Source of the DNA: an uncultured cyanobacterium | GTDB lineage: Bacteria > Cyanobacteriota > Cyanobacteriia > Cyanobacteriales > Microcystaceae | Direction of reading: 5' to 3' | Length of the DNA: 41,057 bases | NCBI GenBank assembly: GCA_903869185.1 | Contig: CAIPYC010000089.1 | Coordinates: 1 to 41,057 of the forward strand | Shown here: in pieces, positions 38,624-41,057 of the stretch | How the letters are laid out: every line of letters begins with the position of its first letter | Numbering within the stretch: the stretch's first letter is position 1 | Made by a program: the position numbers and the translations under genes | Notes under the pieces: model-generated | The model's input: the letters and a program-made list of their open reading frames with translations, nothing else | Told to the model about the DNA's origin: nothing | Database searches by the model: none

Positions 38624-39817
38624 TTAGGCGATACTTTTTCTTTTTCTGGCTTCCTTGTAGGAGGTGCCAACTTTGTTGAGCCCAGCTGCAATCAATTGTT
38701 CTTCTAAAAGATTAAAAAAACTGTGGCGATCTCCCGAGCGGATCACAGCCTGATTGTGCGATTCCGCCAAAGCGATTGGATAACCCAAACCCTTGTGAAC
38801 CTGTGCAAGCAATATACTCAAAGAGCGCTCCAAGAGTTCGCTATCTTCAGCAACCCAAGCTGGAATCTCAACCCGAGCAATCTCTGTACCAACATTGAGA
38901 TAACAAAAGTAAATACGATGGGACTGGTCATAGAGATCTAGTATTTTTAATCGGCTTTTCCAGAGGCAACTGCGTTGTCCAGGTTCGAGCAGATATTGCC
39001 AGAAAGTGGCATCTCGCAGTGGATCAATACCCTGACAGGGAGATTTTTCTACTGGAGAACCACAATAAGCATGGCAGTTAGGTTGTGGATAGGGGCATTG
39101 GGGAAAGCGTAAAAAATTGATCGCCTCAGTACTACGTGATGCGCTGATATATCCCACAAAAGGTATTCTATTTTGCCTTAAATCTTCCCAATAACTCAAA
39201 ATAGGCAATAGAATCCTATCTCTTGCTTCGCTACAGAGTCCATCTAGAAACCAATAGATCAAAGAACCATCCACCATCGCCAGGTTAGGTTCTCCATGTG
39301 CTCCCGGTGGTCGTACCCAGCGACAAGCCATTTGGGATAGTACTTCTATCTCTAGAACACTCCTTTGGTAGCTCATCCAATCTTCGGTTCTAATTCCCCA
39401 TTGTCTGGCTATGTAGATATCTTCTGGTTTGTAATAGATTTCTGGAATGCTGTCAAGTAAAGGATGTAAGTTCTGTTGATAGTGCAACATGACCCTACCA
39501 ATATTCAATAGATAACAATAGGCTATCTCATGATGCGAAGGGGCTATCTGTGAACCATCGGTGGCGAATACACTATGACTCAAGGGAGCTTGAGGAATCT
39601 CACGGCGAGTATCTAATGCTTCAACAGGGGTAGCACTAGCAAAATTGAAAAAACTCTCATATTGCTTTTGCTTTCTTATTACATCTTGTTGCAGGGGTAA
39701 CGTTCGCTCTAGGATCAAAAGAGCCTGTTCTATTCTCTGATGGCTGGCCTTGGCTTCTTGGTGAAAATGCTGGCTGACTCCTGGAATTTTAATCGCTAGT
39801 TTGGCTAAATCCAACAT
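38624..39817 (-). CDS. NurA-domain nuclease family protein
   Basis: 397 residues with the NurA fold: N-terminal helical part, then FATDGSQIAPSHH with the first metal-binding Asp, LAMVDGSLIYWFLDGL with the second, and a C-terminal segment ALAESHNQAVIRSGDR. NurA is a 5'-3' nuclease that usually acts with the HerA translocase in end resection; no herA is nearby. The cysteine-rich stretch around CPYPQPNCHAYCGSPVEKSPC is unusual, with five cysteines. Overlaps the HAD gene upstream by 29 bp, so the two are coupled. Convergent with the GerMN gene. Confidence 0.8.
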   Translation of the reverse strand: MLDLAKLAIKIPGVSQHFHQEAKASHQRIEQALLILERTLPLQQDVIRKQKQYESFFNFASATPVEALDTRREIPQAPLSHSVFATDGSQIAPSHHEIAYCYLLNIGRVMLHYQQNLHPLLDSIPEIYYKPEDIYIARQWGIRTEDWMSYQRSVLEIEVLSQMACRWVRPPGAHGEPNLAMVDGSLIYWFLDGLCSEARDRILLPILSYWEDLRQNRIPFVGYISASRSTEAINFLRFPQCPYPQPNCHAYCGSPVEKSPCQGIDPLRDATFWQYLLEPGQRSCLWKSRLKILDLYDQSHRIYFCYLNVGTEIARVEIPAWVAEDSELLERSLSILLAQVHKGLGYPIALAESHNQAVIRSGDRHSFFNLLEEQLIAAGLNKVGTSYKEARKRKSIA

Positions 39818-40631
39818 CTTTGCTTGGCCATTCTTTAAAGGGGGCTTGGAATTGCTCTAATGATAACAAATTGATACTTGGATCTTTTTGGGCATCTTCT
39901 TTACTTTTGTCCAAATTGTAACCCCAGCGGGCCAAAAACAAACCGATTCCCTGTAGTTTTTTCTCTTTTAGTATAGATTGCAATGTTTCAAGCCTATCTT
40001 CAACAAACCAGATTTCTTTAGGAGCTATACCTTTAGAGTTGACTAAATCTAATAGAGTTTGGGTTTTGGATTGCTTGATTTCTTTGCCGATAATATGTCC
40101 ATCGGGTAGTGAGATTTCGGCGATTTCGAGCAGTTTACCAATGAAACGTCCTTCTTTGGTGGAAATGATATAAACTGGCAGTCCTCGCTCTTGGATATGC
40201 TGCATTTTTTTGATGACACCTGGATAAAACTCCTGAAGAGATAGCCAGATTGAGAGTTCATCATTTATTTGTCTATCTCTGGTTCTATCTAGTTCCTGCG
40301 TTATCAAAGATGGCATAATATTTTCTTGTTCTAGCAGAGTTTCAACTATAGCCATCCAATCATCTAAGATCTCTTGTTCTGACTTGCCCAAGACCAGTGC
40401 CCGGATGATTAAAGGCATTTCCCAGCCATGTTCAACAACTGGACGTAATCTATAGAAGGATTCAGTATATTCATCTAAATCCTCCTTAACCGGCCATATT
40501 TCTTTATAGGCCTGCATGGCAGTTTGAAAATATTCCCTTAGCCCGTTACAGAGTACACCATCAAAATCCAGCGCCAATAAACTAGGTTGATTCATTTTTA
40601 AGCTTTTGTTATTTGCCGAAGATTTAAGCAT
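39789..40631 (-). CDS. HAD superfamily hydrolase
   Basis: 280 residues from the ATG at 40631; an ATG at 40595 (MNQPSLLALDFDGVL, 268 residues) fits the family start equally well and neither has a good ribosome-binding site. HAD motif I is LDFDGVLC, motif II YIISTKEGRF, motif III includes KEIKQSK and motif IV is IWFVEDRLETL. The cap is helical. Likely a phosphatase of unknown substrate. Its 3' end overlaps the nurA start by 29 bp, and a perfect inverted repeat lies just before the first ATG. Confidence 0.83.
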   Translation of the reverse strand: MLKSSANNKSLKMNQPSLLALDFDGVLCNGLREYFQTAMQAYKEIWPVKEDLDEYTESFYRLRPVVEHGWEMPLIIRALVLGKSEQEILDDWMAIVETLLEQENIMPSLITQELDRTRDRQINDELSIWLSLQEFYPGVIKKMQHIQERGLPVYIISTKEGRFIGKLLEIAEISLPDGHIIGKEIKQSKTQTLLDLVNSKGIAPKEIWFVEDRLETLQSILKEKKLQGIGLFLARWGYNLDKSKEDAQKDPSINLLSLEQFQAPFKEWPSKDVGFSQTSD

Positions 40632-40657: not shown

Positions 40658-40734
40658 TTATCGTAGGGACTTGGATCTGGTGTTTGGGATTAAAATTAAC
40701 TTCAGGTCATCCCGATGTTTTGGAATAGGAGAGC

Positions 40735-41004
40735 ATGAATCAACAAAACCTATCTGCCCTGATCTGGTCAGTAGCAGATCTCCTGCGCGGGGATTATAAG
40801 CAGTCCGAGTATGGCAAAGTTATCTTACCTTTTACGGTATTGCGCGGCCTGGACTGTGTATTTGAGACCAGTAAAGCTCTGGTGCTTGCTGAATTTGCGG
40901 ATAAGCAAACGATGGGCATCAATCTTGATCCTTTTCTTCTCAAGGCTTCTGGGCAAAATTTTTATAATATAGCTAAAGTCGGACCTTACAAAGAGGTAAG
41001 ATAG
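40735..41004 (+). pseudogene. hsdM: Truncated type I restriction-modification methyltransferase HsdM
   Basis: The first 80 or so residues match the N-terminal helical domain of HsdM: LSALIWSVADLLRGDYKQSE followed by YGKVILPFTVLRGLDCVFE, then LLKASGQNFYN. GGAG precedes the ATG. After FYN the family sequence stops, and after a short stretch of apparently IS-derived codons comes a stop at 41002-41004. An IS630-type transposase starts a few bases later. The catalytic NPPF/FxGxG domain is absent, so this allele cannot methylate. Whether the rest of hsdM, hsdS and hsdR lies beyond the insertion is outside the window. Confidence 0.85.
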
Positions 41005-41057
41005 AAGAATGCCCAAAACTTATGGTTACGACTTACGGACAAAAGTAATAGAGTCAA
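40976..41057 (+). mobile_element. Left end of an IS630-like insertion sequence
   Basis: The insertion boundary must fall between the last HsdM-like residues (about 40975) and the transposase ATG at 41009; I cannot place the terminal inverted repeat exactly because the right end is missing. IS630 elements duplicate TA; TA dinucleotides occur at several points here. The element continues past the window. Confidence 0.6.
41009..41057 (+). CDS. IS630-like transposase, N-terminus only
   Basis: The last 49 bases encode MPKTYGYDLRTKVIES, the usual opening of IS630-family transposases (compare MPxxYSYDLRxKVIxA), which leads into a helix-turn-helix domain. The gene is cut by the window edge, so its integrity is unknown. 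AGA/AGAAG before the ATG is a weak ribosome-binding site. Confidence 0.75.
   Translation, partial: MPKTYGYDLRTKVIES

What the first reader, a model, noticed from the sequence alone, without database searches (positions are those of the whole stretch)
40735..41057. Type I methyltransferase gene broken by an IS630-like insertion
hsdM opens normally, loses family similarity after FYN near 40970, meets a stop at 41002 and is followed 5 bases later by a transposase start. If hsdR lies downstream, loss of the methylase while a nuclease is kept would be harmful, so the whole system is likely silenced or the event is recent. The N-terminal part is well preserved, which suggests recency.
Basis: seen in the sequence. 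Interest (0 to 1): 0.5.

Follow-up and report, generated by a model that had tools for sequence, protein, structure and literature searches.

The report
Broken restriction gene cut by transposon
A DNA-methylating gene of a bacterial restriction system is cut off after its first 78 codons by a common jumping gene, and neither the rest of that gene nor its DNA-cutting partner was found in this draft genome, so this is most likely an ordinary relic of a lost defence system.

Summary
A type I hsdM gene starts at 40735 and is open for 78 codons (Pfam HsdM_N, E 3.6e-14). It is cut at a TA (40968-40969) by the left end of an IS630-type element. The same left end, with single-base variants, stands after TA at the 15 other copies whose flank I could read. 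The stop at 41002 and the transposase start at 41009 belong to the element. The window is a whole contig that ends inside this repeat, so the far side is not in hand.

No remainder of this hsdM, no relative of its HsdR and no HSDR_N domain was found in the 2.76 Mb draft, and none of 14 right-end candidates borders hsd sequence in the flank fetched. One same-genus relative carries the system as a scarred hsdM-hsdR pseudogene, another only a 27-codon stub, in different surroundings. Harm from a kept nuclease is not expected, because type I cleavage works through the R-M-S complex. Recency is not shown: the fragment departs at an arginine and a leucine that are invariant in 80 of 80 close and 19 of 19 more distant relatives. 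Ordinary decay of a restriction system.

The parts
40735..40968 (+). 5' fragment of hsdM, codons 1-78 (HsdM_N domain, incomplete)
   Evidence: PF12161 E 3.6e-14; 72% identity to P. foliorum HsdM; 80 homologous loci kept
40968..40969 (.). TA target dinucleotide (left copy of the expected TA duplication)
   Evidence: TA precedes the element's left end here and in 15 of 15 other copies with readable flank
40970..41057 (+). left end of an IS630-type insertion sequence, cut off by the contig end
   Evidence: repeat shared with other copies in the assembly
40970..41004 (+). element-derived tail of the hsdM reading frame, including stop 41002-41004
   Evidence: the same stretch stands in other copies of the element
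41009..41057 (+). start of the transposase gene (MPKTYGYDLRTKVIES...), runs off the contig
40712..40734 (+). leader of hsdM with a probable ribosome-binding site (by eye), also conserved before the hsdM remnant of a same-genus relative
   Evidence: 88% identity over 40712-40829 with G002:C100

Best explanation
A type I restriction-modification operon, probably acquired horizontally, was inactivated in a photosynthetic cyanobacterium and is at least partly lost. A cut-and-paste IS630-type element inserted at the TA after codon 78 of hsdM (shown for the left junction only). What can be made is the N-terminal part of HsdM plus 11 residues read into the element, without the N6_Mtase domain (shown), so no methyltransferase or restriction complex of this system can form (inferred). 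The remainder of hsdM and the hsdR of this family are not in the assembly (shown); deletion next to the element, or decay before the insertion, is the likely route (inferred).
For: HsdM_N hit. Element terminus and TA in this and 15 of 15 other readable copies. HTH_Tnp_IS630 and DDE_3 in other element copies (DDE_3). A full-length HsdM query finds only 40735-40983 in the own genome; HsdR query 0 matches there; HSDR_N 0 matches there while it rings in 10 of 14 control genomes. None of 14 right-end candidates borders hsd sequence in 1.0 to 5.8 kb of fetched flank. Same-genus G002 holds the system as a pseudogene: hsdM residues 1-34, 84-125, 119-162, then six HsdR pieces, with TAG stops and frame changes; G001 a 27-codon stub. 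Departures R38G, L43F, R70K.
Against: The contig ends 88 bases into the element; the draft is 96.56% complete in 205 contigs and breaks at this repeat, so the remainder may lie on sequence that was lost. hsdS was looked for only in fetched loci, not genome-wide. The hsdM frame is open up to the insertion and element copies are nearly identical, which also fits a recent event. Two or three unusual residues do not prove relaxed selection, and the 80 relatives were the best-scoring of 562 or more.
Confidence: 0.77

Rival explanations
1. Recent insertion: the element split an otherwise complete hsdM-hsdS-hsdR operon, and hsdM's 3' part, hsdS and hsdR lie on sequence missing from the assembly.
For: Open frame of 78 codons at 72% identity; element copies mostly 95-99% identical; the assembly breaks at the element; 72 of 80 kept relatives carry HsdM aligned in one piece of at least 500 of 580 residues and 49 of 80 an HsdR piece of at least 300 residues.
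Against: No other piece of this HsdM, HsdR or HSDR_N in a 96.56% complete assembly; R38G and L43F at positions invariant in 80 of 80 and 19 of 19 relatives; the two same-genus relatives in hand hold only decayed copies.
Confidence: 0.17
2. Assembly chimera at a repeat: hsdM is whole in the cell, and the contig was wrongly joined to the element.
For: The contig ends in a multi-copy repeat.
Against: The join is at the element terminus and at a TA, as at 15 of 15 other readable copies; the remainder of hsdM is not elsewhere in the assembly.
Confidence: 0.04
3. The 89-residue protein is a retained small protein, for example a regulator or inhibitor made from the HsdM N-terminus.
For: N-terminal hsdM pieces persist in the three genomes of the genus in hand.
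Against: The N-terminal pieces in G002 and G001 are only 34 and 27 codons long and the former has in-frame stops; two invariant residues are changed in the window copy.
Confidence: 0.02

Closest known systems
Type I restriction-modification, HsdM (hsdM-hsdS-hsdR order as in Paenibacillus foliorum, L037)
   Same: HsdM N-terminal domain; 72% identity to the P. foliorum HsdM over residues 1-83; best relatives 65-75%. The G002 remnant also holds HsdR pieces of the same family.
   Different: Only 78 codons; no N6_Mtase domain here, and no hsdM remainder or hsdR of this family in the assembly. The P. foliorum proteins pass Pfam cut-offs but score below NCBIfam's hsdM and hsdR cut-offs, so the subfamily is not named.
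IS630/Tc1/mariner elements; ISY100 of Synechocystis PCC 6803 is the studied cyanobacterial example
   Same: TA before the left end, HTH_Tnp_IS630 and DDE_3 domains in copies of the element; N-terminal residues match 11 plasmid records, best 60% identity, 5 of 11 annotated IS630 family transposase.
   Different: This copy is read for 88 bases only; inverted repeats look imperfect and were compared by eye; at least two other copies are internally deleted. Closeness to ISY100 itself was not tested.
Decayed type I systems (as in S. epidermidis ATCC 12228)
   Same: Partial hsd sets without a working enzyme. A review says disruptions and scrambled organisations are common and that 170 of 2145 genomes (8%) have some but perhaps not all hsd genes (PMC3874165, passages).
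   Different: Here hsdM is broken by an element and no hsdR of this family was found.

Membership tests
Type I HsdM | HsdM_N domain (PF12161) | tested here: met
   E 3.6e-14, 54 bits over cut-off 24.5, profile positions 1-69 of 135
Type I HsdM | N6_Mtase catalytic domain (PF02384) | tested here: not met
   Absent from the 89-codon frame. Five N6_Mtase matches elsewhere in the genome, three over the cut-off; a full HsdM of this family finds only the window fragment
Type I R-M system | hsdR of the system | tested here: not met
   HsdR query 0 matches and HSDR_N 0 matches in the own genome; the DNA behind the element is not in hand
Type I R-M system | hsdS of the system | tested here: inconclusive
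   Looked for only in fetched loci, not genome-wide
IS630 family | insertion at TA with TA duplication | tested here: inconclusive
   Left TA here and in 15 of 15 other readable copies; the right TA of this copy is not in hand
IS630 family | transposase with IS630-type HTH and DDE_3 domain | tested here: met
   In other copies: PF01710 E 2e-07, PF13358 E 7.5e-23; this copy shows only the first 16 residues
IS630 family | terminal inverted repeats | tested here: inconclusive
   Left and right termini read from copies, imperfect, compared by eye only

The most novel reading that the evidence does not exclude
Related type I systems entered this cyanobacterial genus more than once, at different chromosomal sites, and were destroyed each time by a different route (element insertion, deletion with stops, truncation), so that the three genomes in hand keep only relics of this family. 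Recurrent gain and loss would be a small natural experiment on why these hosts do not keep the system.
Probability: 0.3. Interest if true: 0.35.

Novelty: new member of a known kind. Interest (0 to 1): 0.15.

Why it matters
It is a well-bounded case of a restriction gene broken by a transposon, and the 'methylase lost, nuclease kept' worry does not seem to apply, since no nuclease gene of the system was found. The side result, decayed pieces of one hsd family in different surroundings in three related genomes, would matter modestly for the study of restriction turnover in photosynthetic cyanobacteria with small genomes.

Tried and rejected
PF02384 matches in the own genome were candidates for the hsdM remainder: C100, C10, C173 and C92 were opened and rejected as other methylase genes or a weak partial match; C162 (10.3 bits, 39 profile positions) was not opened. 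The full HsdM query finds none of the five. The 14 right-end pattern hits (11 exact, one with 1 mismatch, two with 3) were all tested for HsdM, HsdS and HsdR in 998 to 5830 bases of flank: no match except C10 in the same search set, at 29% identity, which is another methylase and not a right end. One of the 14 (C42) shows no element sequence before it and is probably chance.

A shared position with the relatives was tested and not found. G002's remnant lies about 130 bases from tRNA-Ala near hisF; the orthologous place in G000 (C98) has no hsd match. G002 and G001 show no hsd match in the 193 and 233 bases of contig left behind the match to the HAD gene. The fetched surroundings of the three remnants share no DNA with each other except the 118 bases of hsdM and leader between G000 and G002. 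Later horizontal arrival is kept as a weak idea: third-position differences between G000 and G002 are 8 of 34 in hsdM against 0.43, 0.39 and 0.42 in hisF, fmt and NurA (binomial P 0.02 against 0.42). One row compared the HAD frame with NurA through a motif slip in my script and was dropped; HAD was not compared by codon. A weak HsdR match in G002:C47 (E 0.016) and a distant one in G001:C41 (29%, E 7e-6) were not followed.

Full report
What is there. The window is a complete contig, G000:C89, of a 2.76 Mb draft in 205 contigs, 96.56% complete. Genes for the beta-carboxysome protein CcmM and the RuBisCO large subunit, both over their cut-offs, and a protein with phycobilisome-linker repeats (below the cut-offs of the CpcG models) lie in the window; from these I take it to be a photosynthetic cyanobacterium. 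At 40735 a reading frame opens on the + strand and runs to a stop at 41002-41004, 89 codons. Its residues 6-79 match Pfam HsdM_N at E 3.6e-14, and HsdM of Paenibacillus foliorum aligns to residues 1-83 at 72% identity. In P. foliorum the order is hsdM-hsdS-hsdR (domains; NCBIfam matches are below the curated cut-offs).

The junction. From 40967/40968 to the contig end the sequence is a repeat. I read 16 other left ends; 15 have a readable flank and all 15 have TA followed by the element terminus, with single-base variants in a few (the sixteenth, C158, is cut by its contig end). In the window the TA is 40968-40969 and lies across codons 78 and 79 of hsdM. The stop at 41002 and the transposase start at 41009 lie in the repeat, so the stop is not an hsdM mutation. 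Other copies encode HTH_Tnp_IS630 (E 2e-07) and DDE_3 (E 7.5e-23), and the N-terminal 46 residues match 11 plasmid records, all of cyanobacteria, 5 of 11 annotated IS630 family transposase. ISY100 of Synechocystis, a studied IS630 element, inserts almost exclusively at TA and duplicates it (PMC2170065, abstract and passages). Closeness to ISY100 itself was not tested.

The missing remainder. The contig stops 88 bases into the element. In the own genome the full HsdM query finds nothing but the window fragment, the HsdR query finds nothing, and the HSDR_N family finds nothing, although it rings in 10 of 14 control genomes. The element's right-end pattern has 14 hits in G000, 11 exact; all 14 were tested for HsdM, HsdS and HsdR in 998 to 5830 bases of flank, and none borders hsd sequence. 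The limits: the draft is incomplete and broken at this repeat, hsdS was not sought genome-wide, and of 20 contigs sampled for length the shortest has 2050 bases, so shorter pieces may have been left out of the assembly.

Relatives of the genus. Of 98 genomes searched with the fragment, 19 match at E 1e-5 or better, the own genome included. G002, same genus, holds hsdM residues 1-34, 84-125 and 119-162, followed by HsdR pieces 39-81, 134-179, 254-323, 384-493, 539-679 and 746-874, all on one strand, with TAG stops and frame changes: a decayed operon in which the rest of hsdM and hsdS were not recognised. G001 holds residues 1-27 only (1-28), near a frame that I read as isocitrate dehydrogenase, and no near relative of this HsdR, though it has two HSDR_N matches, two distant hsdM (29% and 33%) and one distant HsdR match. 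The surroundings differ: the fetched stretches around the three remnants share no DNA except 118 bases of hsdM and leader between G000 and G002 (places also). Those 118 bases are 88% identical, against 78-80% for two other stretches compared between these genomes, a weak hint of arrival after the species parted.

Recency. Forty-two positions of the fragment are at least 95% conserved among the 80 relatives; one departure (position 80) lies in the element and is set aside. The others are R38G, L43F and R70K. Leave-one-out counts for the relatives are 0 in 54, 1 in 17, 2 in 9 and never 3. R38 and L43 are held by 80 of 80, and by 19 of 19 more distant homologues that cover them, of 21 loci compared. 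The relatives were chosen by similarity, which favours conserved ones, so this is a hint of relaxed constraint and not a date. Against it, the frame is open and the element copies are nearly identical.

A type I enzyme is 2R+2M+S, the 2M+S trimer is the methylase, and one S subunit serves both activities (PMC3874165, passages). Loss of HsdM should therefore remove cutting together with methylation (inference). Partial systems without hsdM exist in living strains and are described as nonfunctional (PMC6918075, passages). So harm from a kept nuclease is not expected, and no such nuclease gene was found here.

Verdict. Most likely an ordinary relic: hsdM truncated by an IS630-type element, system lost.

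Noticed in passing
G000:C158:13815-14082 (L118) and G000:C136:9683-10073 (L116): Internally deleted, MITE-like copies of the same element with both ends kept (about 268 and 391 bases); the C136 copy sits inside a broken second copy.
   Followed up: partly
L009 (G000:C100:1-3480): A small contig with another N6_Mtase gene (713 aa, TTG start) followed by two short frames of unknown kind, bordered by a different IS630-like transposase start.
   Followed up: partly
L010 (G000:C10:1-1796) and L011 (G000:C173): Two further N6_Mtase proteins, one running off a contig edge, one a large frame that also holds helicase-like sequence (by eye).
   Followed up: no
window 38624-40631: A NurA-domain gene and a HAD-hydrolase gene on the - strand overlap by 29 bases; both are present in G002, and G001 matches the stretch at 68% DNA identity.
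   Followed up: partly
L003 and L004 (G000:C112 and C41): The flanks before the element are nearly identical in these two copies, so the element may sit inside a second repeat.
   Followed up: no
L217:2644-3137 (G002:C100): The hsd pseudogene of the same-genus relative starts about 130 bases from tRNA-Ala (GGC), a possible integration site.
   Followed up: partly
G000, G001, G002: No nifH match over the family cut-off in any of the three genomes of the genus; best matches about 228 bits against 394.
   Followed up: no
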